Shown piece by piece: positions 9,729-35,300 of a stretch of DNA of 64,000 nucleotides. The position numbers were made by a program, and so were the translations under genes. Within the stretch, counting starts at the first letter, position 1; the number at the start of each line of letters is the position of its first letter. The notes under the pieces are model-generated. The model saw only the letters and a list, made by a program, of their open reading frames with translations. It ran no database searches and was not told the origin of the DNA. Location: positions 1 through 64,000 of the forward strand of contig JASANE010010021.1 of NCBI GenBank assembly GCA_030248225.1, written 5' to 3'. The stretch comes from Trileptium ribeirensis. Taxonomy: Eukaryota; Nematoda; Enoplea; Enoplida; Thoracostomopsidae.

Positions 9729-10082
9729 CTTGTTATAGCCGCGGTTCGTGAAAATATGTACTACCCGGTTCATGGCCCCACTTCATTATTCTGACGTTTT
9801 TTTCACGAACCAGTCTGCCACCACCGCTAACATCATCCCTCCTCATGTACCGCATCACCACGGACAGTTGTCCCTCCGCCCAGTTTGTAACTGCCTCGTC
9901 GAAGCAATATGCCTTCGCTCGCTCCACTTAGCTAGCTATATTTTCGTTGCAATTTTACACCCCCGAATGGGTGGTAGGGGCGAAACACATCGAAATTTAT
10001 AAAATGCGACAGAAACAATCAAAAAACCTTTGAAATAATTATATACATAATCTAAAATTATGTAAAAGACATTCAAAAACAT

Positions 10083-10514: not shown

Positions 10515-11224
10515 CATAACTGTAAAAAACTAAACTGAACGTTGTTTGGAAATATCGCGAAGTTTTGGTCGAAAATTCCAGGTTCAATGCTATCTTTGAC
10601 CTCAGTCCAAAGTTAATTTAATTTTGGTTCGAGTCTTAACACAGCAAACTTATGTCCATTTGGAACTGATATTCATTGAAAAGTCTTATCTTGCATATGC
10701 AACATTTTGTTTACAGTAAAACACTAATCAAAACGTTCTGCGCTTCATACAATATTTTCCTCACTTTTCTCTCTAACATGTTCTGACGGGAATAACTGTA
10801 CTACCCCGTACCTGAGACCCCATAAATCCAGAACCAAAGCCTTAAAGGAAAAACAAAAAAGAGACATCGGCATTTATCATTTTACTACAAAATAAAACCA
10901 TCTAGAGAAAAAATTCCAAAGTTAAGATTAAAATAACCTTGTTTCCGTGAAGGGTAATAAAATGTGAAAGGTACTAAAACGTGAGGGGTACCAAAAACCC
11001 ACATTTTGACCCCTGACCCCGGAATCAGACCCCAAATCAAAAAACGCTCGAGGATGCACACGGTAAATCGACTATGCCGGTTCGAGTGAACCCAAGATCA
11101 TGAAAATCGAAGGCGTTCCCGAGTTATGGCCGATCACACACACGCACACGGTATTTAAAAGATTTCACCCCTGCAACACAAAATCTCCACTACGTTCTGA
11201 CAAAACATTCTGCATGCGCCGTAG

Positions 11225-11370
11225 TAATACATATAGTCGCGACCAAAAATAAGACCAATCGAAAACGGTAGCAAAATTGAAATAGCATCGATCGAAATTT
11301 GGTTTAATCGCAATTGATAGAAATTTTAATCAATTATGTTGGTACTTATTTCTGGCCGTCACGGAAAATT
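11225..11370 (-). mobile_element. Mariner-like MITE, IR2 left arm
   Basis: Mirror of 34255-34395. Opposing ends read AGTCGCGACCAAAAATAAG and, inverted, GTGACGGCCAGAAATAAG, around a core with 'atcgatcgaaattt'. The ends resemble the Tc1/mariner type, but a clean TA duplication cannot be fixed. Confidence 0.4.
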
Positions 11371-12808
11371 CTGGCGATTGGGTTCATTGACTCTAAACCT
11401 ATTGAAAACAACTGAAAATGCATGAAATATTCGTGTTGGACTCTAAATAACCAAACCAATACCGGAAAACCCTATATAGGCTATGCACGATACATAACCA
11501 TAAACTGGGAATCTTGATAGTCGACCGTAAAACCCTTGCAACCGCATGAAAAGTATATGGTCATGATGGGATCTAGATAGCAAAACCATCGTATCCAGCG
11601 TGCTTGATAACCTAATACGCACTCATCGCTAGGTAAAACACACAATAACATACCGAAATCTTAAAAAAACGCTATTTCTGACACAAGGTCGGCCCTATGT
11701 GGCCCCAACGCGGCACAGTGAGTGACTTCACAAAAAAAAGTCGTGATCAGTAACGATCTGATTCAATGTGGTGATCTCAGTTTTCGAAGCGAGGCCCGTG
11801 TCGCGAGATATATGCTACAAAATACGGTACCCGTACGGCCAGATTTGGCAAACTGGGGTCTCCATTCGCGCAAAAATTTGCCAGGGGCCCCTAGTTCCGA
11901 ACCCGGGGCGCACGATTTTGCCAGAAGGCATTTTGCTAAGAGAAAAAGATTAAAAATCGTGTCAGAAACACTGCCAAATCCCTTTTGATTGAGATAAACG
12001 ATTTTGAAGCAAATTTTGACAGTTTGCGAAATTTTTGGCTTCAGAACGGAAAGTTAGTACAAATTGTATACACTCTGGAAACAAAAAATTTACCAAGAGG
12101 CAATGAACCGGGGAAGCCCAAGGCAATGAACCGGTGGGGGCACCTGTTTTAAACCAGGGGGAACCGAAAAATGCCAGGGTCCCCTATTTGGAGAGTCCAT
12201 GGCAAAGAACTCTTAAAAAAGTTTTTGCCATTTGTCCTTGAAGATGGCCGGAGATGTTCGCGTTCAACTAAAAGGCAAATCCTAGTTACTTTTGCCATCG
12301 AAAAAAAACCCCCTGAGTATATAGTGCGATGCCCCTTGAGGCTTCGTACCACCACTACCCCGCCCTTCCTTCCCCACGCCAAAAGCGCACGGAAGATTTT
12401 GGTAAAAATATGCAAAAATCGAATAAAATAAAATTTTTGAGTCCCAAAAATTTTGAAAATTTATCCCTCTTCCCTGTGAAGGACCTCCCAAAAGTACCGA
12501 CTCTCCCTCTTGGGACCTTGGGCCTCGTGCATGCATTGTTTTGGCCTAACAGTTAATTACTGACCCTGAAAGCGCTGCAAAAACATGTTTATTAAGGGTA
12601 AAACAATTTTTGAAATGTTTACGTTTTTAAACTTTAACTCCAAAATTCAATTTTAGAAAAAAAATTTCTTTATGTAAACTCCGGATATTTATTATTTAAA
12701 TTTGCCTTTTCTTATAACTTGCATTAGAGACAACAATAACATCACATTTTCATATACATATACTGAGTCAACACATTTTCATAAACATATACTGAGTCAA
12801 TCGCTTAC

Positions 12809-12990
12809 CGACAACTGAACGCAAATATAGGCAGGAATGTTCCGATGCAGCTGCGCAGTTGAGGATTATCCTTTGATACATCGCAGAACCACATCAAAGT
12901 TAATCGACACAACAGTTTCGGTGAATATATGACTTGATGAAGCAACAATTTGCATATACCTTCAGCGATAAGAAAGTGTAGCTCACTTTC
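12809..12990 (-). pseudogene. NCAPG: NCAPG exon copy (matches 32632-32813), antisense duplicate
   Basis: Inverted copy in the IR2 left arm of the exon encoding the segment with GICKLLLH, LTLMWF and FLPIFAFSC. Splice acceptor and donor dinucleotides are preserved and the reading frame is open. It cannot be spliced to the downstream exons because it points away from them. Classed as pseudogene because a companion exon at 19247-19353 is frame-broken. Confidence 0.88.
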
Positions 12991-13017
12991 CTAAAAATGC
13001 AATATTAAATTAAACTA

Positions 13018-13060
13018 CTAGTCTCTCTCAAGCGATAGTGAAACGGAGCGAGCGTGGTTT
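13018..13060 (-). mobile_element. Helitron 3' terminus, IR2 left arm
   Basis: Mirror of the terminus at 32604. On the minus strand: CGCTCGCTCCGTTTCAC, a decayed hairpin, then CTAG (13021-13018) followed by T. It is 27 bp from the exon copy at 12990. Confidence 0.55.
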
Positions 13061-13559
13061 CATTTTAAGTTAACATTTTGTTTTCATGTCACCTTTAACA
13101 TGGTGTGTTTAATGTACATGTACCCACCCTAAAACCTTAGACCCTGAATGCATTGAAAATCCTAAAACCTCGTCCACCCTAAACCATAACCTGCACGCAA
13201 TACGCAGCGAAACAACTGCATACAGACTATACTCCGGAAACAGAGCACATATACATAGATAGAAATACCTATTCTATAGACCATTCTTGAAGTCCTGCAT
13301 GCAATACGTAATCAGACAAATGACGACACACTTTTGGAAATCGGGCGTAAAACCCTTGAACCCCAAGTACAATACAGCCATGTTGCACTCTAGATAGCAA
13401 AACCATTGTATCCAGCGTGCTTGATAACCTAATGGGCACTCATTGTAACATAAAACACACAATAACATTCCAAAATTTGAAAAATTATCGACCAACCAAA
13501 TTCGGGGCCACAGTGGCGCAGGGTGTGGCTTCACAAAAAATCGAGGTCAGCAAAATTGT

Positions 13560-14660
13560 AGATCTCGACTGAATACATCTGTCTACCAGAACATAGGCAG
13601 TGCAGCATTCCATCAAGAACCGCGAAAAGTGGCCGATTTAAAGACCCGTAAACAAGGCGTGGCGGAAGCGCTGTTGGTGAAGGTAATCCAATCATACACC
13701 GTATCCAAGGCATGTGATGCAAAACCATTGAGTTCATCAAGGCTTCGATATAACGGTGGGTGCCCCATCAAGGATTAGCTCTGAGCGCCCTTCTGGTCGA
13801 TATTGCAATGCAGACAGGAGTGAAACCGCGGAATTGTGAGGTGCTATTCGCTGATCACATTGTAATCACAGCCGCACGGCATATGACCTCAGACAGACTC
13901 AAGCTTTGGTATTAAAGGTTGGAAAGCAATGAACTGAAACTCAATGAAACAAAAACCAATGTATTGGTAAACCGCAACAACTGCTCACTCGTAGAATCTG
14001 GCAGGTTTCCGTGTAGAAGTTGTGGCAAGGGAGTGTGAACCAACGCTATCATATACAGCAAGCGCTCAGGCTGGGTCCACAAAGTGTTGGGAACTCTAGC
14101 AGCGTTGCCGAACACAAATGAACGCTTCATATTTCGACCCTGTCATAACACCGTCTGTCGACTAAAGCGCTAGACAGAGGATAAGAAGCACGAAGTGGTT
14201 GAATGGTTGGTTGTATACATTGGAAACATGGTGGACAGTTAAGAAGACGTTAAACGGCCGACAAGAAGACCGCAAAATGAGTGAACGAAATCGAAAGAAT
14301 TCGCACACCTCCTCGTTAATAAACACATTCTCTAAAGCCCAGAGAGAGAAGGTCTATGACGCTGCCATTTGCTATGTCTTAACACCTGGGTGAGAAAACT
14401 GGGCTCTCACCAACGAAGCCGAACAAAATAACTGCGAGGACTGACAGGAAGATGCTCAGATAGATGCCGAGGGTGAAGTGGGAAGAAAGGATTACTGCTG
14501 ACGTCGTTTACAAAATGGTGGTATTGGCAACTGTGGAGCAAATACTGCGGAAGAGACCAATCATTTGGTTTCAAATTTTGATATACATGTCGTAGCAGTA
14601 GTCCTCTGCTATTGATGAAGCAGTAGTTCACGTGGCCCGCGCCTAGGGTAGACGAGCGTT
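13560..14660 (+). pseudogene. LINE reverse transcriptase fossil (IR2 left arm)
   Basis: Frame-broken non-LTR retrotransposon. In different frames one can read the RT block HQGLALSALLVDIAMQTG followed by LFADHIVITAA, i.e. the catalytic box F-A-D-D with the second Asp replaced by His, then a cysteine-bearing stretch CRSCGKGV and WVHKV typical of the region after the RT domain, and near 14450-14640 the C-terminal RKMLRWMPRVKWEERI and KRPIIWF blocks. Many stops and shifts: inactive. The inverted copy is at 30975-32060. Confidence 0.75.
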
Positions 14661-15053
14661 ACGCTGTTGTATAATGTATTCTTTCGTAAGCTATGCAATG
14701 TATATGTCATATATATAATGCAATTGCAAATGGAATATCTTTCAGTATTAGAAAACCCCTAAACGAATGAACGGACCGTCAATCTTCGGGTTAGGCCCAA
14801 CCCCTGAGAACCCACCTAGAATTTTGGGCCCTACGCAACACTGGACTATTCCATTTCCCAATTAGACTTGAAGACATGACGTAACTCTAAAATCGGTGCA
14901 CTCCATGTTTACAGTTTCTGCATTGAAGCACAGTCACTAATGCCTCTGATACAAAGAACAACACATCCGTAAAAATCGATCCGATAATCAAGCGCTATAA
15001 ATTTTTGTCAACAGTAATGTTCCAGTATTCTTAAAGAAAAATTCCTAACTCAC

Positions 15054-15236
15054 TTCAGTATTATCTAACATTTCTACAAACAACGATAATATACTATCGG
15101 CAATGTTGACCGCTGACACGTTAGGGTCTTCCGATTCGACCAACGGTTCGGCGATATCCGTCCCATACAAAATGAGTAGATCAAACAAGACTCGCAATGT
15201 TGTCTTTTTAACTTGCACAATATCAACTTTCAATGT
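15054..15236 (-). pseudogene. NCAPG: NCAPG exon copy (matches 30380-30562), antisense duplicate
   Basis: All 183 bases match the sense exon by eye, with intact AG and GT sites. It encodes the stretch with VKKTTLRVLFDLLILYG. Part of the inverted duplicate in the IR2 left arm. Confidence 0.9.
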
Positions 15237-15675
15237 CTATAATATTTAGATAAAGAAATCGTAATACTGGTGTCGTCTTGGTTATAGCAGGAGAATTCTT
15301 TATTCTAATGGCAGTTCGTCCATTATAGAATCTATATACAATGAACGCATTGTTTCATCTTAAAATTTTGGATGCAGTCAAATCCAGAAATTTCACAATT
15401 GCGCTAAATCTGACTCCTATTCTTTAGAACAAAAAACTAACACTAATAAATTTTGATATGCTTTGTACACAAACGCTAACACACCTTTCCAGAATCAACG
15501 AATTTGCCATAGTATTTAGTATTATTTCAAAGAATGACACAGCAAACACAGCACACATCTTTTAGAGGTAATTATCCTGATATTTGATGTTTTGAACTGT
15601 CGGGTGCAACATTAGCGTTTGTACAGTACTCGTCAAGACTGAATGTTGTTGCGAGTTCTTATCTCCCGTTCCGCT

Positions 15676-15785
15676 ACAGTCGTAACCAGGGTAGCTGAAG
15701 CACACGGCGTGAGAAAATTATGCTCACAGGAGGGATCGAACATGTAGCCTCATGATTGTGATACTTCCGCTCTAATCCATGCAGT
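15676..15785 (-). mobile_element. tRNA-derived SINE, IR2 left arm
   Basis: Mirror of 29831-29940. On the minus strand: A-box-like GGATTAGAGCGG, about 30 bases, then a good B box ATGTTCGATCCC, followed by a non-tRNA body. Internal RNA polymerase III promoter boxes are inferred. Confidence 0.6.
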
Positions 15786-16052
15786 GTGATTAATACGTAG
15801 TAATTCATTTTTATCTGTTACGTATTATGTATCAACACAATAACTATTAGTAATAACAAGAGTGCACTTGAAAAGAGCATGACACTTTCCTACACTCTAA
15901 TGTTAGCCCGTATTTGATAACGCGAGCGCTTTCGGCCTGTCCCTTCCTAGTTTTAGGGGTCGTCGTGCACACTCCCTCACCAAGTTTCACGAGGGCCAGC
16001 TCCGACCACAGTTTTTTTTGGCTGGGGAGGTCAGTTAAACCTGTAGCTGCCG

Positions 16053-16514
16053 AAATTTGTCTCTTAGTGATTACATTGCGAAGATGTGGAGAACGTACCG
16101 CATACATGGGTATCTTCACCGACATAGAAGATTGCTGGGAATAATTTTTCTCTTAGCGATTACATTGCGAAGATATGGATAAGGTCGCCGCGTATTTCTA
16201 AATCAGTTTTCCCTGTCTACAAAAGCCGAAATTATTTACGTCACAACGATGAATATAAACCAAAAACATAAAATACGCCTTATTCAAATTACCGTTACGC
16301 TGGTTATTTATAATAGATTTAATACAATATACAACTGATTCACAAGTCGGCGCTCCAGTCTACATAGTTGATTGGTGGGATTAATTTCCTCTTTTTAGCG
16401 GTTACACTGCGAAAATACGGATTAAGGTCTCCGCGTAATTTCGAAATCACTTTTACTTTGTACAAAAGCCAAAATTCTGTGCGTCACAACACTTCATATG
16501 ACCCAAAACATAAA
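16053..16514 (-). repeat. 240-bp direct repeat block, IR2 left arm
   Basis: Mirror of 29104-29565: two and a half copies of a unit containing 'ttttggcttttgtagac' and 'gtagactggagcgcc'. Confidence 0.6.
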
Positions 16515-17193
16515 CCAGTGAAGCTCGCTTGCGAGCCAGAATTCGACTGGTGAGAACAATCCCCCGAAGTCTGTTGTAGAAAGCAAACACAAACAAAGCC
16601 TACACACAGTACGCAGGTGCAGCATTATATAAACCGTGAGTGATGAGTCATAGTTACGCCCGCCTCTTTTGATAGCCAACGTATGCAGTAGACAAAACAT
16701 CATAGAACGAGCACAAAAACAATCAAATAACAATTTATTAATTCAATAAAACCCTAAATTGACAAAAGAACGTTAAAGAATTCAAACCGACACTTGAGAA
16801 AAATCTCATTTTTCATCCCAAGTATGAATCGAGAAGTATGAAAAATATTTGCCACACAATATTTTTGACACTCGCCGATCAGCTTGTTATTTAGCCACCA
16901 AAACCCCATATCCGACACTAAAACCAACAATAAGCACACATTTAGGTGCATTTCCCACGACTTTAAACCAAATATGAAATTTGGCGCCAACTATAAGCAT
17001 AAGATTCCAGATTGGAAATAGTTGAAAAACTTTCATCGACCATTGAGGTTCGAATGAGCTATCTTGCATCAAAATCCGCCCAACCGTTATCGAGATCCAG
17101 GTGCGACAGACACACAGACACGACCTCCTCAACCCCCCTCCAGAGCCGAAATTGAAAATTCTCGTTCCAGCTTCGCTCTCTCATTCCACTCGA
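16515..17193 (-). mobile_element. Non-autonomous Helitron, IR2 left arm
   Basis: Mirror of 28427-29103. Minus-strand 3' end has the perfect hairpin GCTCGCAAGCGAGC, then TTCA and CTGG, followed by T. Confidence 0.68.
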
Positions 17194-17789
17194 ATTCAAA
17201 TACGCCGCATTCAAATTACCTATACAACGGTTATTTACAATAAATTAATACAATATACAACAAGTGATTTACAAATCGGAGCTCCAGTCTCTAGGACAAC
17301 GGGAAAAGAGCAAAAAATGGAACACAGCTTCGCCCAATTCATTTTTTGCATTAAAATTGCGGGTAAATTTGTATGTTTGAAGTCAGGTTGCACGTCAGCG
17401 TTGGAATATACTGCGACAAAAATAAGGAATAAGTTACATTTCTCAGTTGGCACACCCCGTTTTCCATATTTTCCCTCTCGTTTTTCTATTTTTCCTCGTT
17501 TTCCACGTTGCTTCGGGGACCCAGTATGAAAGTAATGTTTTCGCACGTCTCCAAAAAATCCCAAAAACATTTGCACATTTCAGATATCAACCGCCACGAA
17601 CGATTTTACCAGGAATGGTTAATAAATTTCATGCCCAAAAACTGGGTCGTATACACGGGTATGAGCGTGATGCAGGCCATCACCACGGTCTCATTACTTT
17701 TCACCGCATCGGTGTTACTACAGCCAAATTAAAACAATGGCTGTAGTAAACCGAAAAGTCGCTGAGTTGTTTCTTATATCTAATCATAC

Positions 17790-17909
17790 CTGTACTAAAA
17801 ACAACATATTCCTGCTGACAAGAGTTTTGTCCAACAGGCAACACAGACCAATACCGCGGAAAGCGAGGTTTCGAATATACGGATCTTCTTCTTTAATACT
17901 TGGAGTTAT
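17790..17909 (-). pseudogene. NCAPG: NCAPG exon copy (matches 27711-27830), antisense duplicate
   Basis: Identical over 120 bases to the sense exon encoding YIRNLAFRGIGLCCLLDK. Splice signals are retained (ttctggttcag before, GTATGA after). Part of the inverted duplicate. Confidence 0.9.
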
Positions 17910-18125
17910 CTGAACCAGAAAAATCAACGATGATATGAATGAAAACACTGTTAAAACACAATGCGATTACACACAATTTGACATCCAAGACACCAAATTA
18001 TAAAAAATACAGTAAGTCCGCAATCAGAAACATTTAACACAATGTGCTCAACACAATGTTAAGTGAATTGTATATAGTTATCACAATCGATTAGAGTAAT
18101 AGAACCACAAACAAGTACGCAATAT

Positions 18126-18374
18126 TTACCACAATCCGCAACTGTAAATAAAACAATAACACAATATTAATTTGTTTTCATAATTTAGCCTTTCCTGAAA
18201 TTTTAAATTTGCAGTACTGAGTAGCAAAGCAGATAATGTATACAGCGACGGTACTTCAACAGTCTCTTCAGGATATTCAGTCATCCAAGTTTTAATGCAC
18301 AAATTAGATTCTTCTTTATGATCAAAGGTTTTCTCATGCTGGTATTTTAAGGAGCTATCGGCGCGCCATCTCAA
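18126..18374 (-). other. Unrecognised 82-codon open frame, IR2 left arm
   Basis: Mirror of 27246-27494 with the same translation. See that entry. Confidence 0.2.
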
Positions 18375-18777
18375 GGTTCGTCGAACCGATAAACACTAAT
18401 TCCTGCATTCCCACAAGGACAAAATAGTACCTAAAGTCCATTGACCTGTTAAGTCCGCCGCTATCTGGAGGAACGATAATTAACACATATATACATGAGA
18501 ATAATTTCTCCGCAAGTTACGTGCTACTACAGCTTATATAACATGTATGTAAAATTGTAAATATCAGCGTATTGTCATGCCACCCGTTAGGTTGTAATTT
18601 TGGTAGCAAGCATAATGCAATGTTTGCCTATCGAGAACAACCTTCAGCAGGCACCGCTACATTTTACTAACTACTATATTACGAATAGGTAAAATGGCAA
18701 TTTAATGTAATACTTTGGCCACCACCTCTGAATGATTATTTTTGACATAAACTAAGTAATATGTTTGCAAGTAGACC

Positions 18778-19108
18778 CTGGCCTGTCCACAGTCGGGGGC
18801 ACCCTCAGCTTTTCAAATCCAAATCCCCCCACTCGGCCAAAACCCCCATGTTCAATTAAATCCAAAAAAATTTTGTCTCAAAATTTATGTACGCAAAATG
18901 TTTTTAAACATTAATTACCACTATTTTTAATGCTAAAATATTGTTTTTTAGCTTGAAAGTACGTTCACAGTAGTAAAAATGCATGAAAACATGGAAATAT
19001 TTTGCATTTTAAGATATTTATCCCCCCACTTAAAAATTTCCCCCTAGTAATGAACGTGGGGACCCTCGAAGTTCCCCCCCACTTTTCGGAGGGTTGCGGA
19101 CAGGCCAG
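18778..19108. mobile_element. MITE of the CTGGCCTGTCCACA family, IR2 left arm
   Basis: 331 bp. Inverted ends CTGGCCTGTCCACAG and TGCGGACAGGCCAG, with a 5-bp direct repeat AGACC on both sides (18773-18777, 19109-19113). G/C-rich homopolymer-like subterminal zones and an AT-rich middle. Confidence 0.8.
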
Positions 19109-19246
19109 AGACCCACAATTTACTTGTGTGCAAAAAGCTTTTTTGTTTTTAATCGATAGGCTTGCAACTTATAGCTGTTTGAAATATGTTTTACGCTATA
19201 TTGCCATAATTCTGATATTGGAACTATAGAGTAAAAACCAATTTAC

Positions 19247-19353
19247 AAGTCATCAAGCAAAGAACGACAGGTATCCGAAAGTTGTCCCATGCGACAATTT
19301 TTAAGCATTTCACACGTTATTGAAAGGCATTTAAATAGCACAGTCGGGTTACT
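19247..19353 (-). pseudogene. NCAPG: NCAPG exon copy (matches 26251-26358) with 1-bp deletion
   Basis: The sense exon ends GACTTG followed by GTAAAT; here the minus strand reads GACTT followed by GTAAAT, so one G is missing, and using that donor shifts the downstream frame. One codon is also changed (CGT to TGT, Arg to Cys). This is the clearest sign that the left-arm copy is not maintained. Confidence 0.88.
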
Positions 19354-19551
19354 CTAAAATGGGCGACGTTATTGACCAAAAATCAAATAACAATATTATT
19401 ATTACTATTATTGATATATCTTATCCTATAACATGACTATAACGTATGTATTGTGCACTAGAATCACGATGTTTAAGAAAATATAGTTATATCTGTCAGT
19501 TTTAATAATACATTGCTGACAAATTACACTCTACGATAACTTGCAACTAGT

Positions 19552-19841
19552 CAGGCGCGACGCAACCTGATGTACTTCTGATAACGTGAATTGTAACAAG
19601 CTGACGGGCTCAGGTAGACAGTCGTGTAATTCGTCGGCCAGTTGACCACGTTACTCAGCGTGTTTTGCGGAAGATCTCCCTGGCTACAGGGGAGAACGAC
19701 CACATCTCACATGGAAAGTGTCGAACAGGATATGCAACAACGTGGCCTTAGCAACACATGGCACTAGACAGGGAAATATGGATATACGGACTGGGCCTAA
19801 CCCTACGTGCTTGAGTCAGCGGTCTCCAAAGGCGAGCAACT
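19552..19841 (+). mobile_element. 5'-truncated LINE insertion, IR2 left arm
   Basis: Mirror of 25753-26050. Flanked by ACTTGCAACTAGT (19539-19551) and a partly decayed second copy starting at 19842. Confidence 0.65.
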
Positions 19842-20034
19842 ACTTGCAACTATATATACTACATGTGAGAGTGAAAAAGGTGAAAAATACTTTTCAGTCA
19901 TTACATCACTCACTAAAATATTGAAAACAAAAGGGACACTGAACACCTTTAGAAAGTTATTTCACCCATTAAGATAACGAAAACAAGCAGATATCGAACC
20001 CCTTTGGAAAAAAGATTATTTACAATATTCTCTT

Positions 20035-21819
20035 TGCTGATGGGAAAAAAATCCGAACTATTCTGATACGATTTCTTATCCGGATATTATCGAGCAGTCT
20101 CGGAATATCCGGATATCGTGATATGCATTTGTGAGCAGTTGCAAAATGTTACTAGTTGAGAAGCGAGAAACAATGGATTTTAGGATGCCTTTTACAGATG
20201 TTTTCCTATGACCTTTTAGAAGACATTTTGTGGTTAGGCTTGCATATTGTGTGTTTAGGCAGTCAATTTTAGCGTATATATTTGCCCTAAACCACCGACA
20301 TGAAGGAACTTGAGGCGACTTTCCCAGATTTGGTTTAGTTGGAACCACAAAACTCTTTTTCTGATATATTTTTTTAATGTTCAATAGATTTTTATTCAAG
20401 TGTATTTATATTTCTGCTTTTGGGTTTGTTGCTGCTTGATGAAACGGAGCTGGCTAAGCAAGCGGAGTTTCCATTGAATTAGGTAAAACGTTTCTTTCTC
20501 TATCGGAGTAAGCCATAATCCATCTTCATGTTGGTTGATTTCGACAAAATTTTTTTTTCATTTTTGCCTTTTAGATGAGAACTAAGTTCGTTAAGACCCA
20601 TTTTTAGGGGCAAAATGGCAAAAGTTAACTTTTTAAGGACCTTCGCAAATCTGGAAACAAGGTTTCCTATGTTTCCGCATTTTATATCACGCGACACAGG
20701 CTGCCAGAGACCACTGCCCAAAATCAGCTCATGCAGATTTACTATTCTGCTCGACATCACTTTTATAAGGCCACTCCTGCCAATCCTCAGACCGCTTTAT
20801 CGTTGACAATCTCAATTTCCAAAATGCAATTTGCTTTCATTTGACAACTACTAATGTAATTCTACCAGGGTATCAAGAATAGTTTATGCATTGTAGAAGT
20901 TCTGGCGCGATGAATATTACGGTTTGGTTACATAGAGCCCGTAAAAAATTTCATACCTTTTCAGTGATTTTCAAATGCTGTAGGGTCGACAAACCTGATT
21001 TGTCATCCTTTGGTTGGATATATAAATTGCTTTAATGTCTGTCATGCTATGAAAAAAAAATTTTTGCCCACATATCATGTGTATACCCAAAACAAGGAAC
21101 AGGTAAATTTTTTAAATGATACACATCAAAGTATATTTTATATTGGAAATTACTAAATTTAAATAACAGACTCGAAAATGCCACAAGCTTGGCCTTTTAT
21201 CAGATATTATGCATTTTTATCCTCGGCCGTATGAAATTTATTGCAAATTGGTGGGTATTGTACAATCCTGCATCCTTGGCTACTAATGGGCTCTGACACC
21301 TCATCTAAATTCCAAGATATCTAAAATATCCCAAATTTCCGTAATATTCTGAATGAATTAGGGTTAACTATAAATTAAAATAGTCAATAATGTTAATTTA
21401 AAACTGTCCACTCAAATATACTTAATCGTCGTGTTAGTGTAAACCCGTATATACCTTAAACATTAGTGCAAATGCATCTTATCAAGAGAAAATGTTTGTT
21501 TATATATATATAGAGTAAATCGTAAAATAGTGGTTGTACAGTACGCGCCAGAAATGACTCGCATTTCAAGCGAGCGGCTCGCTTGTGATTTCTAAACTAG
21601 ATCAATAATAAATCCTATTTTCGGAATAAAATATTTCGACCGATTCGCGACCGAGCGACAATCATTTAAAACGGGTAATGTAGCAGTGAATGGTAAACTC
21701 TAATAGTCTTTGAAGTTTAATACAAGTTTAAAAATTTTGGACATGGTTTTCCATATCCGGATTACTGATATATCTCAATTTTACCCGGATATGGTAATCC
21801 ATATCCACACCCATCACTA
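20035..21819. mobile_element. hAT-like element, family C, IR2 left arm
   Basis: Mirror of 23775-25556, with ends TGCTGATGGG and CCCATCACTA and 8-bp flanks ATTCTCTT and ATTCTCTC. Contains ATCCGGAT-type subterminal repeats at 20080-20120 and 21750-21800. Confidence 0.6.
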
Positions 21820-21905
21820 ATTCTCTCATATCATTTACTAGTTATTTCATTCGCTAAAATACCGAAAGCAACGAAAAGGTTCACCACTACGCCATATAAT
21901 TTTAC

Positions 21906-21999
21906 ATTTGTTCTACATATAAAATGACTATAATGTTGAACCTCCAGGTTGTCCAAAATCTCATTTCGAGCGAGTATCTTTAACTTGTGATTTCTCTTA
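21906..21999 (-). pseudogene. NCAPG: Possible NCAPG exon copy (matches 23595-23688)
   Basis: Inverted duplicate of the weakly supported exon at 23595-23688, with the same translation. See that entry for the argument and its limits. Confidence 0.4.
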
Positions 22000-22625
22000 C
22001 TGAAATAGAAATGCAACAATGTTTTCAACCTCTTAAAGACAATCTATTTTATGTATCGTTAACACGAAATACATAATATCGAGTTGTGAAATTTACAAGT
22101 AAGGATTTCAGGAATTGAGGTTACCTTAAATAGTTTTTGTATTGCAGTATGTTGCTCTTATAATGATCACTACCTTAGGTTCATATTCAGTTACGTTACG
22201 GATTGGCAAACCCCTTTTGTCTTATCGGCATGTACTCATAAAATTGCATTTAAGTTCACCGAGATACTTTGATTTCGTAACTGTAGCTAGCCTTTTCAGT
22301 CTAACGAACTTATAGAAATAAACAAATACGTTTAAAGCTGATTTTTAACTATACAGTTTTCAAACGTTATAGATGCAGAAGTTCATGTTTCCATTAAGAG
22401 AATTATTTCTACTTTGTTTTCGTCACTTTGCTTGAACGAAAAAAATGGCGATGGACGTCTGTGGCACAATTTTCTTCGATAGGTCAGATAAAAACCAATT
22501 TTTGGGCACCCGCATAGAACAAATTTAGAGTATACGCAGGTAGCCAGCTACTAGAAACAGTGTTACAAAGTCACTAGAGGACTCAATTTATCAAGATACT
22601 TTTTAACGTTCCTAAACTTCTGCTT

Positions 22626-23594: not shown

Positions 23595-23688
23595 TAAGAG
23601 AAATCACAAGTTAAAGATACTCGCTCGAAATGAGATTTTGGACAACCTGGAGGTTCAACATTATAGTCATTTTATATGTAGAACAAAT
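23595..23688 (+). CDS. NCAPG: Probable NCAPG exon (weak)
   Basis: A good acceptor (catttctatttcag) precedes one base plus 31 open codons, and a donor GTAAAA follows. The peptide KLKILARNEILDNLEVQHYS aligns loosely with the charged linker of NCAPG just upstream of the next exon (E-x-L-E/D-N ... Q-x-Y/F pattern). The frame stays open past the donor to 23763, so the exon could be longer or not exist. The following intron carries the hAT-C element and a LINE piece. This is a lineage-level comparison from memory of the family, not an alignment. Confidence 0.42.
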
Positions 23689-23774
23689 GTAAAATTATAT
23701 GGCGTAGTGGTGAACCTTTTCGTTGCTTTCGGTATTTTAGCGAATGAAATAACTAGTAAATGATATGAGAGAAT

Positions 23775-25556: not shown

Positions 25557-25752
25557 AAGAGAATATTGTAAATAATCTTTTTTCCAAAGGGGTTCGATAT
25601 TCTGCTTGTTTTCGTTATCTTAATGGGTGAAATAACTTTCTAAAGGTGTTCAGTGTCCCTTTTGTTTTCAATATTTTAGTGAGTGATGTAATGACTGAAA
25701 AGTATTTTTCACCTTTTTCACTCTCACATGTGAGTATATACTAGTTGCAAGT

Positions 25753-26050
25753 AGTTGCTCGCCTTTGGAGACCGCTGACTCAAGCACGTAGGGTTAGGCC
25801 CAGTCCGTATATCCAGATTTCCCTGTCTAGTGCCATGTGTTGCTAAGGCCACGTTGTTGCATATCCTGTTCGACGACGCGTTTCCATGTGAGATGTGGTC
25901 GTCCTCTCCCCCTGTAGCCAGGGAGATCTTGCCGCAAAACACGCTGAGTAACGTGGTCAACTGGCCGACGAATTACACGACTGTCTACCTGAGCCGTCAG
26001 CTTGTTACAATTCACGTTATCAGAAGTACATTGAGGTTGCGTCGCGCCTG
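25753..26050 (-). mobile_element. 5'-truncated LINE insertion with 13-bp target duplication
   Basis: Flanked by ACTAGTTGCAAGT at 25740-25752 and 26051-26063. On the minus strand it encodes a LINE C-terminal segment with RRPVDHVTQRVLRQDL, GRGRPHLTWKRVVEQDMQQ, matching the Gly-Arg-Gly-Arg-Pro-x-x-x-Trp signature at the end of many animal non-LTR reverse transcriptases. About 300 bp, so severely 5' truncated. Confidence 0.8.
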
Positions 26051-26250
26051 ACTAGTTGCAAGTTATCGTAGAGTGTAATTTGTCAGCAATGTATTATTAA
26101 AACTGACATATATAACTATATTTTGCTTGAACATCGTGATTGTAGTGCACAATACATACGTTATAGTCATGTTATAGGATAAGATCTGTCGATAATAGTA
26201 ATAATAATATTGTTATTTGATTTTTGGTCAATAAGCGTCGCCCATTTCAG

Positions 26251-26358
26251 AGTAACCCGACTGTGCTATTTAAATGCCTTTCAATAACGTGTGAAATGCT
26301 TAAAAATCGTCGCATGGGACAACTTTCGGATACCTGTCGTTCTTTGCTTGATGACTTG
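26251..26358 (+). CDS. NCAPG: NCAPG exon: KCLSITCEMLK block
   Basis: Acceptor cccatttcag, 36 codons, donor G|GTAAAT. Peptide includes LFKCLSITCEMLKNRR and LSDTCRSLLDDL, aligning with the NCAPG helix that precedes the Cnd3 repeats. Phase 0 at both ends. Confidence 0.88.
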
Positions 26359-29300
26359 GTAAATTGGTTTTTACTCTATAGTTCCAATATCAGAATTATG
26401 GCAATATAGCGTAAAACATATTTCAAACAGTTATAAGTTGCAAGCCTATCGATTAAAAACAAAAAAGCTTTTTGCACACAAGTAAATTGTGGGTCTCTGG
26501 CCTGTCCGCAACCCTCCGAAAAGTGGGGGGGGGGAACTTCGAGGGGTCCCCACGTTCATTCTCGGGGGAAATTTTTAAGTGGGGGGATAAATTTTGCTTA
26601 AAATACAAAATATTTCCATATTTTCATGCATTTTTACTACTGTGAACGTACTTTCAAGCTAAAAAACAATATTTTAGTATTATAAATAGTGGTAATTAAT
26701 GTTTAAAAAACAATTTGCAAAAGAACATAAATTTTCAGACAAAAAATTTTTGGAATTAGTTGAACATGGGGGTTTTGGCCGAGTGGGGGGATTTGGATTT
26801 GAAAAGTGAGGGGGGGGTCCCCCACTGTGGACAGGCCAGGGTCTACTTGCAAACATATTACTTAGTTTATGTCAAAAATAATCATTCAGAGGTGGTGGCC
26901 AAAGTATTACATTAAATTGCCATTTTACCTATTCGTAATATAGTAGTTAGTAAAATGTAGCGGTGCCTGCTGAAGGTTGTTTCTCTCGATAGGCAAACAT
27001 TGCATTATGCTTGCTACCAAAATTACAACCTAACGGGTGGCATGACAATACGCTGATATTTACAATTTTACATACATGTTATATAAGCTGTAGTAGCACG
27101 TAACTTGCGGAGAAATTATTCTCATGTATATATGTGTTAATTATCGTTCCTCCAGATAGCGGCGGACTTAACAGGTCAATGGACTTTAGGTACTATTTTG
27201 TCCTTGTGGGAATGCAGGAATTAATTTTTATCGGTTCGACGAACCTTGAGATGGCGCGCCGATAGCTCCTTAAAATACCAGCATGAGAAAACCTTTGATC
27301 ATAAAGAAGAATCTAATTTGTGCATTAAAACTTGGATGACTGAATATCCTGAAGAGACTGTTGAAGTACCGTCGCTGTATACATTATCTGCTTTGCTACT
27401 CAGTACTGCAAATTTAAAATTTCAGGAAAGGCTAAATTATGAAAACAAATTAATATTGTGTTATTGTTTTATTTACAGTTGCGGATTGTGGTAAATATTG
27501 CGTACTTGTTTGTGGTTCTATTACTCTAATCGATTGTGATAACTATATACAATTCACTTAACATTGTGTTGAGCACATTGTGTTAAATGTTTCTGATTGC
27601 GGACTTACTGTATTTTTTATAATTTGGTGTCTTGGATGTCAAATTGTGTGTAATCGCATTGTGTTTTAACAGTGTTTTCATTCATATCATCGTTGATTTT
27701 TCTGGTTCAGATAACTCCAAGTATTAAAGAAGAAGATCCGTATATTCGAAACCTCGCTTTCCGCGGTATTGGTCTGTGTTGCCTGTTGGACAAAACTCTT
27801 GTCAGCAGGAATATGTTGTTTTTAGTACAGGTATGATTAGATATAAGAAACAACTCAGCGACTTTTCGGTTTACTACAGCCATTGTTTTAATTTGGCTGT
27901 AGTAACACCGATGCGGTGAAAAGTAATGAGACCGTGGTGATGGCCTGCATCACGCTCATACCCGTGTATACGACCCAGTTTTTGGGCATGAAATTTATTA
28001 ACCATTCCTGGTAAAATCGTTCGTGGCGGTTGATATCTGAAATGTGCAAATGTTTTTTGGATTTTTTGGAGACGTGCGAAAACATTACTTTCATACTGGG
28101 TCCCCGAAGCAACGTGGAAAACGAGGAAAAATAGAAAAACGAGAGGGAAAATATGGAAAACGGGGTGTGCCAACTGAGAAATGTAACTTATTCCTTATTT
28201 TTGTCGCAATATATTCCAACGCTGACGTGCAACCTGACTTCAAACATACAAATTTACCCGCAATTTTAATGCAAAAAATGAATTGGGCGAAGCTGTGTTC
28301 CATTTTTTGCTCTTTTCCCGTTGTCCTAGAGACTGGAGCTCCGATTTGTAAATCACTTGTTGTATATTGTATTAATTTATTGTAAATAACCGTTGTATAG
28401 GTAATTTGAATGCGGCGTATTTGAATTCGAGTGGAATGAGAGAGCGAAGCTGGAACGAGAATTTTCAATTTCGGCTCTGGAGGGGGTTGAGGAGGTCGTG
28501 TCTGTGTGTCTGTCGCACCTGGATCTCGATAACGGTTGGGCGGATTTTGATGCAAGATAGCTCATTCGAACCTCAATGGTCGATGAAAGTTTTTCAACTA
28601 CTTCCAATCTGGAGTCTATAAGCTTATAGTTGGCGCCAAATTTCATATTTGGTTTAAAGTCGTGGGAAATGCACCTAAATGTGTGCTTATTGTTGGTTTT
28701 AGTGTCGGATATGGGGTTTTGTGGGCCAACAAGCTGATTGCGAGTGTCAAAAATATTGTATGGCAAATATTTTTCATACTTCTGATTCATACTTGGTATG
28801 AAAAATGAGATTTTTCTCAAGTGTCGGTTTGAATTCTTTAACGTTCTTTTCCCGGTCAATTTAGGGTTTTATTGAATTAATAAATTGTTAGTTGATTGTT
28901 TTTGTGCTCGTTGTATGATATTTTGTCTACTGCATACGTTGGCTATCAAAAGAGGCGGGCGTAACTATGACTCATCACTCACGGTTTATATAATGCTGCA
29001 CCTGCGTACTGTGTGTAGGCTTTGTTTGTGTGTGCTTTCTACAACAGACTTCGGGGGATTGTTCTCACCACTCGAATTCTGGCTCGCAAGCGAGCTTCAC
29101 TGGTTTATGTTTTGGGTCATATGAAGTGTTGTGACGCACAGAATTTTGGCTTTTGTAGACAAGTAAAAGTGATTTCGAAATTACGCGGAGACCTTAATCC
29201 GTATTTTCGCAGTGTAACCGCTAAGAGGAAATTAATCCCACCAATCAACTATGTAGACTGGAGCGCCGACTTGTGAATCAGTTGTATATTGTATTAATTT

Positions 29301-32300
29301 ATTATAAATAACCAGCGTAACGGTAATTTGAATAAGGCGTATTTTATGTTTTTGGTTTATATTCATCGTTGTGACGTAAATAATTTTGGCTTTTGTAGAC
29401 AGGGAAAACTGATTTAGAAATACGCGGCGACCTTATCCATATCTTCGCAATGTAATCGCTAAGAGAAAAATTATTCCCAGCAATCTTCTATGTCGGTGAA
29501 ATTACCCATGTATGCGGTACGTTCTCCACATCTTCGCAATGTAATCACTAAGAGACAAATTTCGGCAGCTACAGGTTTAACTGACCTCCCCAGCCAAAAA
29601 AACTGTGGTCGGAGCTGGCCCTCGTGAAACTTGGTGAGGGAGTGTGCACGACGACCCCCTAAAACTAGGAAGGGACAGGCCGAAAGCGCTCGCGTTATCA
29701 AATACGGGCTAACATTAGAGTGTAGGAAAGTGTCATGCTCTTTTCAAGTGCACTCTTGTTATTACTAATAGTTATTGTGTTGATACATAATACGTAACAG
29801 ATAAAAATGAATTACTACGTATTAATCACACTGCATGGATTAGAGCGGAAGTATCACAATCATGAGGCTACATGTTCGATCCCTCCTGTGAGCATAATTT
29901 TCTCACGCCGTGTGCTTCAGCTACCCTGGTTACGACTGTAGCGGAACGGGAGATAAGAACTCGCAACAACATTCAGTCTTGACGAGTACTGTACAAACGC
30001 TAATGTTGCACCCGACAGTTCAAAACATCAAATATCAGGATAATTACCTCTAAAAGATGTGTGCTGTGTTTGCTGTGTCATTCTTTGAAATAATACTAAA
30101 TACTATGGCAAATTCGTTGATTCTGGAAAGGTGTGTTAGCGTTTGTGTACAAAGCATATCAAAATTTATTAGTGTTAGTTTTTTGTTCTAAAGAATAGGA
30201 GTCAGATTTAGCGCAATTGTGAAATTTCTGGATTTGACTGCATCCAAAAATTTCAAGATGAAACAATGCGTTCATTGTATATAGATTCTATAATGGACGA
30301 ACTGCCATTACAATAAAGAATTCTCCTGCTATAACCAAGACGACACCAGTATTACGATTTCTTTATCTAAATATTATAGACATTGAAAGTTGATATTGTG
30401 CAAGTTAAAAAGACAACATTGCGAGTCTTGTTTGATCTACTCATTTTGTATGGGACGGATATCGCCGAACCGTTGGTCGAATCGGAAGACCCTAACGTGT
30501 CAGCGGTCAACATTGCCGATAGTATATTATCGTTGTTTGTAGAAATGTTAGATAATACTGAAGTGAGTTAGGAATTTTTTCTTTAAGAATACTGGAACAT
30601 TACTGTTGACAAAAATTTATAGCGCTTGATTATCGGATCGATTTTTACGGATGTGTTGTTCTTTGTATCAGAGGCATTAGTGACTGTGCTTCAATGCAGA
30701 AACTGTAAACATGGAGTGCACCGATTTTAGAGTTACGTCATGTCTTCAAGTCTAATTGGGAAATGGAATAGTCCAGTGTTGCGTAGGGCCCAAAATTCTA
30801 GGTGGGTTCTCAGGGGTTGGGCCTAACCCGAAGATTGACGGTCCGTTCATTCGTTTAGGGGTTTTCTAATACTGAAAGATATTCCATTTGCAATTGCATT
30901 ATATATATGACATATACATTGCATAGCTTACGAAAGAATACATTATACAACAGCGTAACGCTCGTCTACCCTAGGCGCGGGCCACGTGAACTACAGTTCT
31001 TGCTTCATCAATAGCAGAGGACTACTGCTACGACATGTATATCAAAATTTGAAACCAAATGATTGGTCTCTTCCGCATTATTTGCTCCACAGTTGCCAAT
31101 ACCACCATTTTGTAAACGACGTCAGCAGTAATCCTTTCTTCCCACTTCACCCTCGGCATCTATCTGAGCATCTTCCTGTCAGTCCTCGCAGTTATTTTGT
31201 TCGGCTTCGTTGGTGAGAGCCCAGTTTTCTCACCCAGGTGTTAAGACATAGCAAATGGCAGCGTCATAGACCTTCTCTCTCTGGGCTTTAGAGAATGTGT
31301 TTATTAACGAGGAGGTGTGCGAATTCTTTCGATTTCGTTCACTCATTTTGCGGTCTTCTTGTCGGCCGTTTAACGTCTTCTTAACTGTCCACCATGTTTC
31401 CAATGTATACAACCAACCATTCAACCACTTCGTGCTTCTTATCCTCTGTCTAGCGCTTTAGTCGACAGACGGTGTTATGACAGGGTCGAAATATGAAGCG
31501 TTCATTTGTGTTCGGCAACGCTGCTAGAGTTCCCAACACTTTGTGGACCCAGCCTGAGCGCTTGCTGTATATGATAGCGTTGGTTCACACTCCCTTGCCA
31601 CAACTTCTACACGGAAACCTGCCAGATTCTACGAGTGAGCAGTTGTTGCGGTTTACCAATACATTGGTTTTTGTTTCATTGAGTTTCAGTTCATTGCTTT
31701 CCAACCTTTAATACCAAAGCTTGAGTCTGTCTGAGGTCATATGCCGTGCGGCTGTGATTACAATGTGATCAGCGAATAGCACCTCACAATTCCGCGGTTT
31801 CACTCCTGTCTGCATTGCAATATCGAACAGAAGGGCGCTCAGAGCTAATCCTTGATGGGCACCCACCGTTATATCGAAGCCTTGATGAACTCAATGGTTT
31901 TGCATCACATGCCTTGGATACGGTGTATGATTGCATTACCTTTACCAACAGCGCTTCCGCCACGCCTTGTTTACGGGTCTTTAAATCGGCCACTTTTCGC
32001 GGTTCTTGATGGAATGCTGCACTGCCTATGTTCTGGTAGACAGATGTATTCAGTCGAGATCTACAATTTTGCTGACCTCGATTTTTTGTGAAGCCACACC
32101 CTGCGCCACTGTGGCCCCGAATTTGGTTGGTCGATAATTTTTCAAATTTTGGAATGTTATTGTGTGTTTTATGTTACAATGAGTGCCCATTAGGTTATCA
32201 AGCACGCTGGATACAATGGTTTTGCTATCTAGAGTGCAACATGGCTGTATTGTACTTGGGGTTCAAGGGTTTTACGCCCGATTTCCAAAAAGTGTGTCGT

Positions 32301-35300
32301 CATTTGTCTGATTACGTATTGCATGCAGGACTTCAAGAATGGTCTATAGAATAGGTATTTCTATCTATGTATATGTGCTCTGTTTCCGGAGTATAGTCTG
32401 TATGCAGTTGTTTCGCTGCGTATTGCGTGCAGGTTATGGTTTAGGGTGGACGAGGTTTTAGGATTTTCAATGCATTCAGGGTCTAAGGTTTTAGGGTGGT
32501 ACATGTACATTAAACACACCATGTTAAAGGTGACATGAAAACAAAATGTTAACTTAAAATGAAACCACGCTCGCTCCGTTTCACTATCGCTTGAGAGAGA
32601 CTAGTAGTTTAATTTAATATTGCATTTTTAGGAAAGTGAGCTACACTTTCTTATCGCTGAAGGTATATGCAAATTGTTGCTTCATCAAGTCATATATTCA
32701 CCGAAACTGTTGTGTCGATTAACTTTGATGTGGTTCTGCGATGTATCAAAGGATAATCCTCAACTGCGCAGCTGCATCGGAACATTCCTGCCTATATTTG
32801 CGTTCAGTTGTCGGTAAGCGATTGACTCAGTATATGTTTATGAAAATGTGTTGACTCAGTATATGTATATGAAAATGTGATGTTATTGTTGTCTCTAATG
32901 CAAGTTGTAAGAAAAGGCAAATTTAAATAGAATATCCGGAGTTTACATAAAGAAATTTTTTTTCTAAAATTGAATTTTGGAGTTAAAGTTTAAAAACGTA
33001 AACATTTCAAAAATTGTTTTACCCTTAATAAACATGTTTTTGCAGCGCTTTCAGGGTCAGTAATTAACTGTTAGGCCAAAACAATGCATGCACGAGGCCC
33101 AAGGTCCCAAGAGGGAGAGTCGGTACTTTTGGGAGGTCCTTCACAGGGAAGAGGGATAAATTTTCAAAATTTTTGGGACTCAAAAATTTTATTTTATTCG
33201 ATTTTTGCATATTTTTACCAAAATCTTCCGTGCGCTTTTGGCGTGGGGAAGGAAGGGCGGGGTAGTGGTGGTACGAAGCCTCAAGGGGCATCGCACTATA
33301 TACTCAGGGGGTTTTTTTCGATGGCAAAAGTAACTAGGATTTGCCTTTTAGTTGAACGCGAACATCTCCGGCCATCTTCAAGGACAAATGGCAAAAACTT
33401 TTTTTAAGAGTTCTTTGCCATGGACTCTCCAAATAGGGGACCCTGGCATTTTTCGGTTCCCCCTGGTTTAAAACAGGTGCCCCCACCGGTTCATTGCCTT
33501 GGGCTTCCCCGGTTCATTGCCTCTTGGTAAATTTTTTGTTTCCAGAGTGTATACAATTTGTACTAACTTTCCGTTCTGAAGCCAAAAATTTCGCAAACTG
33601 TCAAAATTTGCTTCAAAATCGTTTATCTCAATCAAAAGGGATTTGGCAGTGTTTCTGACACGATTTTTAATCTTTTTCTTTTAGCAAAATGCCTTCTGGC
33701 AAAATCGTGCGCCCCGGGTTCGGAACTAGGGGCCCCTGGCAAATTTTTGCACGAATGGAGACCCCAGTTTGCCAAATCTGGCCGTACGGGTACCGTATTT
33801 TGTAGCATATATCTCGCGACACGGGCCTCGCTTCGAAAACTGAGATCACCACATTGAATCAGATCGTTACTGATCACGACTTTTTTTTGTGAAGTCACTC
33901 ACTGTGCCGCGTTGGGGCCACATAGGGCCGACCTTGTGTCAGAAATAGCGTTTTTTTAAGATTTCGGTATGTTATTGTGTGTTTTACCTAGCGATGAGTG
34001 CGTATTAGGTTATCAAGCACGCTGGATACGATGGTTTTGCTATCTAGATCCCATCATGACCATATACTTTTCATGCGGTTGCAAGGGTTTTACGGTCGAC
34101 TATCAAGATTCCCAGTTTATGGTTATGTATTGCGTGCATAGCCTATATAGGGTTTTCGGTATTGGTTTGGTTATTTAGAGTCCAACACGAATATTTCATG
34201 CATTTTCAGTTGTTTTCAATAGGTTTAGAGTCAATGAACCCAATCGCCAGAATTTTCCGTGACGGCCAGAAATAAGTACCAACATAATTGATTAAAATTT
34301 CTATCAATTGCGATTAAACCAAATTTCGATCGATGCGATTTCAATTTTGCTACCGTTTTCGATTGGTCTTATTTTTGGTCGCGACTATATGTATTACTAC
34401 GGCGCATGCAGAATGTTTTGTCAGAACGTAGTGGAGATTTTGTGTTGCAGGGGTGAAATCTTTTAAATACCGTGTGCGTGTGTGTGATCGGCCATAACTC
34501 GGGAACGCCTTCGATTTTCATGATCTTGGGTTCACTCGAACCGGCATAGTCGATTTACCGTGTGCATCCTCGAGCGTTCTTTGATTTGGGGTCTGATTCC
34601 GGGGTCAGGGGTCAAAATGTGGGTTTTTGGTACCCCTCACGTTTTAGTACCTTTCACATTTTATTACCCTTCACGGAAACAAGGTTATTTTAATCTTAAC
34701 TTTGGAATTTTTTCTCTAGATGGTTTTATTTTGTAGTAAAATGATAAATGCCGATGTCTCTTTTTTGTTTTTCCTTTAAGGCTTTGGTTCTGGATTTATG
34801 GGGTCTCAGGTACGGGGTATGGCGTCCCAATGGTTGCTCATTGCCGGTGTGGTTTTGCTCTGTGACCCATGGGTGTGAGGGTATGGCGTCCCAAGTTTCG
34901 TGGTCAGAGAGCAAAATAAATGTTTTTTTACCTCATTTTAGTACGCATGACGGAAGCAAGAACTTTGGAATTTTTTTATCTGGTTGGGTTTATTTCATAG
35001 TAAAACGATGAATGCCGATGCCTCTTTTTTGTTTTTCGATTACGGCAGCGGTTCATAGGGTTTGAGGCATGGCACCCCCTTGGTTCCTTGACCCAAAATC
35101 CGAAAATTGTTTCTGACGTTCTGAGGGGTTAAAAAGTTTTACTTGGTGGTTTTTGGGCAAGGCAAACTCGTTACTGGTGTTGATTTTGCTCTGCGATCTA
35201 TGGTTGTATGGGTACGGGGGTATGGCGCTGCCATGGTTCATCTATCCAAAGTTCCTAATTTTACTGTTACTTCCTGGGAGGCTGATAGCTTGCACTTGGG

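What the first reader, a model, noticed from the sequence alone, without database searches (positions are those of the whole stretch)
10802..34819. 24-kb palindrome carrying an inverted duplicate of four or five condensin NCAPG exons
Arms of about 11.8 kb around a 343-bp spacer. Sense exons in the right arm continue into exons outside the repeat, and the left arm has the same exons pointing the other way. Exons at 27711 and 30380 are identical to their mirrors while one exon (19247-19353) has lost a base. A host-gene palindrome of this size inside an intron is rare, and could be a recent fold-back duplication kept similar by arm-to-arm conversion.
Basis: partly seen in the sequence, partly recalled or inferred. 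Interest (0 to 1): 0.9.

Follow-up and report, generated by a model that had tools for sequence, protein, structure and literature searches.

The report
Two abutting palindromes in a condensin gene
Part of a cell-division gene is preceded by its own mirror image, which is joined end to end to a second, smaller mirror-image pair; this looks like the scar of a DNA break whose two ends folded back and copied themselves, but an assembly error is not excluded.

Summary
The 24-kb interrupted palindrome is in the sequence: arms 10802-22626 and 22961-34819, 98.4% identical, spacer 334 bp. The right arm holds four in-order exons of condensin subunit NCAPG (Pfam Cnd3); the gene continues at 37052 and 61574. 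No NCAPG exon was found to the left, so "inside an intron" is unproven.

One of its arms carries an 806-bp hAT-like insertion; the other has the clean empty site.

Most of the arm difference in the large palindrome does not look like ordinary divergence. It is micro-clustered, rich in single-base G/C deletions and, where it can be polarised, mostly derived in the left arm. Consensus error (or a mutation burst) fits, so the "lost base" exon and gene conversion are weakly supported. Outside three noisy zones the arms differ by 0.22% in substitutions.

Best reading (about 0.5): a double fold-back scar, in which both ends of one break folded on microhomology, copied 2.8 and 11.9 kb, and were joined. 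Main rival (about 0.35): a chimeric or haplotype-mixed assembly. No reads or genome could be consulted.

The parts
3446..6221 (+). arm A of the small palindrome P1 (first sure base about 3453)
   Evidence: self-BLAST 99.4% (1071 columns) and 98.6% (1716 columns) to the reverse complement of 7221-10797; arm pairs
6222..7220 (.). spacer s1 of P1, 999 bp, no second copy in the window
7221..10797 (-). arm A' of P1, inverted copy of A (sure match ends about 10789)
8923..9728 (.). hAT-like insertion in A' (ends TAGAGTTGCA/TGCAACTCTA, 8-bp target duplication CTTGTTAT at 8915-8922 and 9729-9736); intact empty site in A at 4506-4513
   Evidence: ends and empty site; 814 columns absent from A
10790..10803 (.). 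junction between the outer ends of A' and L, with 4-12 bp that match neither parent cleanly
10802..22626 (-). left arm L of the large palindrome P2, inverted copy of R with antisense NCAPG exons
22627..22960 (.). spacer s2 of P2, 334 bp; a piece of it (22853-22886) is a diverged copy of 22984-23018 in R
22961..34819 (+). right arm R, the gene copy, continuous with the right flank
26248..26361 (+). NCAPG exon Ea (human residues about 551-588; acceptor AG at about 26249-26250)
27711..27833 (+). NCAPG exon Eb (human residues about 589-629)
30386..30565 (+). NCAPG exon Ec
   Evidence: ORF 30380-30571; within the matched stretch
32635..32814 (+). NCAPG exon Ed (human residues about 705-764)
19244..19356 (-). 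mirror of Ea in L: one G missing, two C/T differences
17787..17909 (-). mirror of Eb, identical
15051..15230 (-). mirror of Ec, identical
12808..12987 (-). mirror of Ed, identical
37052..37207 (+). NCAPG exon E5, outside the palindrome
61574..61741 (+). probable NCAPG exon E6, outside the palindrome
   Evidence: 30.8 bits, E 0.011

Best explanation
The window holds the scar of an inverted, templated rearrangement with the order A s1 A' | L s2 R. Proposed mechanism: one double-strand break lay between s1 and s2. Each resected 3' end folded back on itself at a short inverted microhomology, leaving loops of 999 bp (s1) and 334 bp (s2). Each was then extended by copying its own chromosome, 2.8 kb of A and 11.9 kb of R including four NCAPG exons. 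The two new ends, A' and L, were joined by end joining with a few filler bases. Shown: both palindromes, their spacers, their back-to-back junction, the gene exons, and a hAT-like insertion in A' only. Inferred: that both palindromes come from one event, that s1 and s2 were neighbours, and that the structure is in the chromosome.
For: Two interrupted palindromes end back to back within about 4-12 bp, which one double fold-back predicts and two independent events would give only by coincidence (chance not computed). Spacers of 334 and 999 bp and short inverted matches at the inner ends: 5 bp AAAGC then one mismatch in P2, 12 bp CGCAAACAGTTG then one mismatch in P1. Human fold-back duplications have 21 sequenced spacers of 766-70,466 bp, and 13 junctions with 2-8 bp of inverted microhomology (PMC3907307, passages). 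In yeast a folded-back end is extended and captured by the other break end through NHEJ (PMC11724301, passages). L stops inside a repeat that runs on past 34819 on the R side, so L is the derived copy. A' has a hAT-like insertion with an 8-bp target duplication and A has the intact empty site, so A and A' are not one molecule read twice. P1 differences are isolated: 0 of 18 spacings at 3 bp or less.
Against: No read, depth, second assembly or relative could be checked. Three zones, R 22961-23460, 23961-26989 and 28441-29599 (4,688 bp), hold 94 of 110 substitutions and 50 of 62 indels in a pattern like poor consensus. The outer 5.2 kb is cleaner but still has as many indels (12) as substitutions (12), mostly in runs of one base, so some consensus error may remain there too. 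All four 1-bp indels of P1 are missing from A'. P1 (14 substitutions in 2,747 bp) and the clean part of P2 (16 in 7,171 bp) differ in divergence (p = 0.025), while one event predicts equal ages. No NCAPG exon is found left of P2, so the left flank may not belong to this locus. The P2 spacer is shorter than any of the 21 sequenced in PMC3907307.
Confidence: 0.5

Rival explanations
1. Assembly artefact: chimeric molecules with inverted repeats (whole-genome amplification or fold-back reads), or a mixture of both haplotypes, were built into the contig. A' and L are second-haplotype or low-support copies of A and R. Real arm identity would be near 100% or equal to heterozygosity, and the hAT difference would be allelic.
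For: Differences are micro-clustered (31 spacings of 3 bp or less against 10.1 expected in R 24100-27000, maximum of 2000 simulations 23), mostly derived in L where they can be polarised (19 against 7, p = 0.029; 13 against 2 where two or more outgroup copies agree, all of these in one stretch of about 340 bp), and rich in single-base deletions outside runs (15 missing from L against 4 from R, p = 0.019; 13 of the 15 are G or C). MDA gives inverted chimeras with intervening deletions and 2-21 nt priming matches (PMC1855051, passages), and reads with several inversions (PMC13265396, passages). ONT fold-back reads are about 0.55-0.6% of gDNA reads (PMC12870357, passages).
Against: A' carries isolated differences plus a TE insertion, and the outer 5.2 kb of L next to it is much cleaner than the rest. 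Spacers of 334 and 999 bp exceed the 200-bp default limit by which Breakinator calls fold-back artefacts, although that paper shows one artefact read with about 2 kb between its segments. Three chimeric joins inside about 15.4 kb would be needed. A real inverted duplication also lowers nanopore base-calling accuracy (PMC7229812, passages), so the noise is not proof of an artefact.
Confidence: 0.35
2. A replication-based triplication with an inverted middle copy (ODIRA or DUP-TRP/INV-DUP type; these names and models partly recalled), with an internal deletion in the inverted copy. In the ancestral order A would lie downstream of NCAPG, and the left flank would be a second copy of DNA to the right of the window.
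For: Same junction anatomy: an inverted copy bounded by two short interrupted inverted repeats. No NCAPG 5' exons found in the left flank. ODIRA was seen as title and abstract opening only (PMC4689423).
Against: No near-identical second copy of A or of 1-3446 lies in the right flank to 64000, only repeat-family matches of 91% or less, so the spared segment would have to exceed 29 kb. An extra deletion is needed.
Confidence: 0.1
3. An older palindrome kept alike by arm-to-arm gene conversion, as in sex-chromosome palindromes, with unconverted blocks keeping older differences.
For: Alternation of near-identical and roughly 3% blocks; three of four exons identical.
Against: Unconverted neutral blocks should hold evenly scattered differences, equally derived in both arms; the first prediction fails clearly and the second fails at p = 0.029. 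The indel to substitution ratio, 62:110, is high.
Confidence: 0.05

Closest known systems
Fold-back inverted duplications with disomic spacer (human, PMC3907307; passages read)
   Same: Unduplicated spacer between inverted copies, short inverted microhomology at the spacer edge, copy ends in a foreign junction
   Different: Those in the passages seen are Mb-scale, beside terminal deletions or translocations, and single-sided; here two interstitial fold-backs with 2.8- and 11.9-kb arms meet head on
Templated fold-back inversions at HO breaks in yeast (PMC11724301; passages read)
   Same: A 3' end folds on an imperfect inverted microhomology, is extended, and is captured by the other break end through NHEJ
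   Different: There 2 to about 150 bp and one end; here kilobases and apparently both ends
MDA inverted chimeras (PMC1855051, PMC13265396; passages read)
   Same: Inverted copies with an unduplicated interval, short priming matches, several inversions in one molecule
   Different: In vitro; does not by itself explain isolated differences and a transposon insertion in one arm, unless haplotypes are mixed
Sex-chromosome palindromes (for example PMC3723533; search listing and abstract opening only)
   Same: Large inverted repeats with genes in the arms
   Different: Arm identity there is kept by conversion; no clear sign of it here, and no whole gene is duplicated

Membership tests
Fold-back inverted duplication | Unduplicated spacer between inverted copies | tested here: met
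   334 bp and 999 bp, no second copy in the window
Fold-back inverted duplication | Inverted microhomology at spacer edges | tested here: inconclusive
   5-bp and 12-bp matches with a mismatch beside each; without the parental allele they cannot be told from the arms
Fold-back inverted duplication | Derived copy truncated and joined to other DNA | tested here: met
   L stops at 10802 inside a repeat that continues past 34819; 4-12 bp of unexplained bases at the join
Fold-back inverted duplication | Present in the organism's DNA | not testable with these tools
   no reads; the genome search did not complete in eleven tries
Palindrome kept alike by gene conversion | Arms more alike within a species than between species | not testable with these tools
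   no relative or second individual held
Palindrome kept alike by gene conversion | Differences in unconverted blocks scattered evenly and derived equally in both arms | tested here: not met
   micro-clustering; L-biased derivation, 19 against 7
Assembly or library artefact | P1 arms are copies of one molecule | tested here: not met
   hAT-like insertion in A' only, with empty site in A; haplotype mixing stays open
Assembly or library artefact | P2 arms are copies of one molecule | tested here: inconclusive
   no marker like the hAT insertion; differences look partly like consensus error
Assembly or library artefact | Junctions lack independent read support | not testable with these tools
   no reads
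NCAPG (condensin subunit 3) | Cnd3 C-terminal domain in consecutive exons | tested here: met
   PF12719 E 3.8e-30, PDB 6igx_B E 2e-17
hAT-type transposon (the 806-bp insert) | 8-bp target duplication and short terminal inverted repeats | tested here: met
   CTTGTTAT twice, TAGAGTTGCA ends; hAT hallmark recalled
hAT-type transposon (the 806-bp insert) | hAT transposase or a known autonomous parent | tested here: inconclusive
   one ORF of the insert (9252-9707) has no Pfam match (protein 5); a parent element was not looked for

The most novel reading that the evidence does not exclude
One germline double-strand break was repaired by fold-back synthesis at both ends, kilobases long, followed by end joining. 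This left two back-to-back palindromes inside a working condensin gene, so that its pre-mRNA would carry four of its own exons in antisense upstream and could fold into an 11.8-kb hairpin over them.
Probability: 0.15. Interest if true: 0.65.

Novelty: new member of a known kind. Interest (0 to 1): 0.4.

Why it matters
If real, the pair of palindromes would be a readable fossil of fold-back repair at both ends of a break, with loop sizes, priming sites and the join all preserved. It predicts one exact ancestral join (7220 next to 22627) that a single read or a sister genome can confirm. It would also ask how a cell transcribes and splices a condensin gene whose transcript could pair with itself over 11.8 kb. 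If it is an artefact, it is a useful warning: a gene annotator would count these exons twice.

Tried and rejected
Whole-genome search (genome search, own assembly) was asked with the same request and never answered, so copy number, 5' exons, other palindromes in the genome and the organism stay unknown. Protein homologue searches found nothing: 47 candidates (region coordinates probably misplaced over the padding) and 494, none at E 0.001. Rfam and tRNA scans: 0 matches. Pfam on seven other ORFs of the window: 0 of 7 matched.

Considered and rejected: A as a transposon present in two inverted copies; its ends show no terminal inverted repeats or exact target duplications by eye, and it contains a fragment of another repeat family. 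A strong one-way substitution bias such as A-to-G: L-to-R counts are AG 19, GA 11, TC 16, CT 14. P1 as a misread single molecule: excluded by the hAT-like insertion. Origin of the junction filler: 9-10-base matches elsewhere in the window look like chance. Runs of L-side and R-side indels along the arm: 24 runs, not significant (p = 0.085).

Limits of the polarisation: five stretches were compared (35 events: 19 L-derived, 7 R-derived, 9 ambiguous). One search covered three more stretches, in the clean zone: one without differences, one with a single unresolved site, one with a single R-derived site; adding that site gives 19 against 8 (p about 0.05, by hand). The subset 13 against 2 was read off (p = 0.007 by hand) and lies in one stretch of about 340 bp. 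The clean and noisy zones were chosen after seeing the difference density.

Full report
Observation. Self-comparison of the window returns one long inverted match: 22961-34819 against 22626-10802, 98.37% identity over 11,890 columns with 98 mismatches and 66 gap openings. The spacer is 334 bp. On a MAFFT alignment the arms differ by 110 substitutions and 62 indel events. Translated exons of the right arm plus one exon outside it hit Pfam Cnd3 (PF12719, E 3.8e-30) and condensin subunit 3 in the PDB (6igx_B, E 2e-17). A recalled human NCAPG placed exons in order at 26248, 27711, 32635, 37052 and 61574; those inside R have a mirror in the left arm. Exon Ec (30386-30565) was recognised from its ORF and lies between them. 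So four exons are duplicated and the gene runs on to the right. No convincing NCAPG exon lies in 1-10801 among the 40 best hits. The exons that should come next upstream may be too diverged to see, so this is weak evidence.

A second interrupted palindrome lies directly to the left: 3446-6221 and 7221-10797, 98.6-99.4% identical, 999-bp spacer. Its outer end at about 10789-10797 meets the outer end of the large palindrome at 10802-10804, with 4-12 bases that match neither side cleanly. The order is A s1 A' | L s2 R. Arm A' contains an 806-bp insertion (8923-9728) with ends TAGAGTTGCA/TGCAACTCTA and an 8-bp target duplication CTTGTTAT; arm A has the uninterrupted site. These are the marks of a hAT-type element (hallmark recalled). 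The insertion post-dates the split of A and A', whether they are duplicates or alleles.

Which copy is original. R is continuous with the gene, and at 34819 it sits inside a repeat that runs on to the right and has relatives at 35785 and 44834. L stops inside that repeat, so L is the derived copy.

The differences between L and R. They are far from evenly spread: 44 of 171 spacings are 3 bp or less, against 7.2 expected (maximum 17 in 2000 simulations). Within the noisiest stretch, R 24100-27000, there are still 31 against 10.1 expected, with an identical run of 379 bp. Using other repeat copies in the window as outgroups, 19 events are derived in L, 7 in R and 9 unclear (p = 0.029). Where two or more outgroup copies agree the count is 13 to 2, but these sites lie in one stretch of about 340 bp. 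Adding the one site from the clean zone gives 19 to 8. Deletions of a single base outside any run are missing 15 times from L and 4 times from R, and 13 of the 15 are G or C. Outside three noisy zones, 7,171 bp hold 16 substitutions and 12 indels, while the other 4,688 bp hold 94 and 50 (zones chosen after seeing the density). The clean zone is not beyond doubt either: its 12 indels all lie in the outer 5.2 kb, as many as its substitutions there, mostly in runs of one base. Neutral duplicates and gene conversion predict evenly scattered differences derived equally in both arms. The observed pattern is that of poor consensus in parts of L, or of a mutation burst in newly made DNA. The base missing from the first mirror exon lies in a noisy zone. 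Nanopore reads lose accuracy in inverted duplications (PMC7229812, passages), so the noise does not by itself decide between a real palindrome and an artefact.

Mechanism. The whole structure can be made in one step: a break between s1 and s2, each 3' end folding back on itself, copying 2.8 and 11.9 kb, and the two new ends being joined. At the inner ends there are short inverted matches next to a single mismatch: CGCAAACAGTTG in P1 and AAAGC in P2. That is what imperfect microhomology priming would leave, although chance is possible. Precedents: human inverted duplications have unduplicated spacers of 766-70,466 bp and 2-8 bp microhomology (PMC3907307, passages). In yeast a break end folds on a 10-bp imperfect inverted repeat, is extended by Pol delta and is captured by the other end through NHEJ (PMC11724301, passages). 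Kilobase fold-backs at both ends joined head on were not described in the passages I saw. The one targeted search listed 12 of 20 papers, and none of those titles or abstract openings names it. This is a narrow search of open-access papers only.

Rivals. Whole-genome amplification makes inverted chimeras with intervening deletions (PMC1855051, passages) and reads with several inversions (PMC13265396, passages). ONT fold-back reads occur at about 0.55-0.6% in genomic DNA, with virtually none in the PacBio HiFi sample examined (PMC12870357, passages). A chimera that also mixes two haplotypes would explain the hAT difference. Against this, A' has only isolated differences, and the outer 5.2 kb of L that meets it is much cleaner than the rest. 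A triplication with an inverted middle copy remains possible if A's original place is beyond 64000. The unequal divergence of P1 (14 substitutions in 2,747 bp) and clean P2 (16 in 7,171 bp), p = 0.025, counts against a single event.

Verdict. Fold-back duplication is the better biological reading, gene conversion is not supported, and misassembly stays a serious rival because no reads or genome could be consulted. The organism was not identified.

Noticed in passing
8923-9728: 806-bp hAT-like element with CCGGGT-rich minisatellite near both ends, present in one arm of the small palindrome only.
   Followed up: yes
26497-26821, 38537-38844, 40382-40709, about 3764-4114: Copies of one interspersed repeat family (about 73-82% alike), used here as outgroups; one copy lies inside arm A.
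   Followed up: partly
843-2033 and 48767-49975: Inverted pair of a 1.2-kb repeat, 91% identical; a diverged third copy (72%) at 43141-43896.
   Followed up: no
34425-36401 and 44400-45686: Cluster of partly overlapping diverged repeat copies; the outer end of the right palindrome arm lies inside it.
   Followed up: partly
22853-22886 and 22984-23018: Diverged short direct repeat across the spacer edge, one copy in the spacer and one at the start of the right arm.
   Followed up: partly
57166-57503: Tandem array of units of about 36-45 bp (AAATGTTGACCATT...), inside the long gap between the last two NCAPG exons found.
   Followed up: no
63660-63741: Perfect 35-bp tandem repeat (2.3 copies) at the right end of the window.
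   Followed up: no
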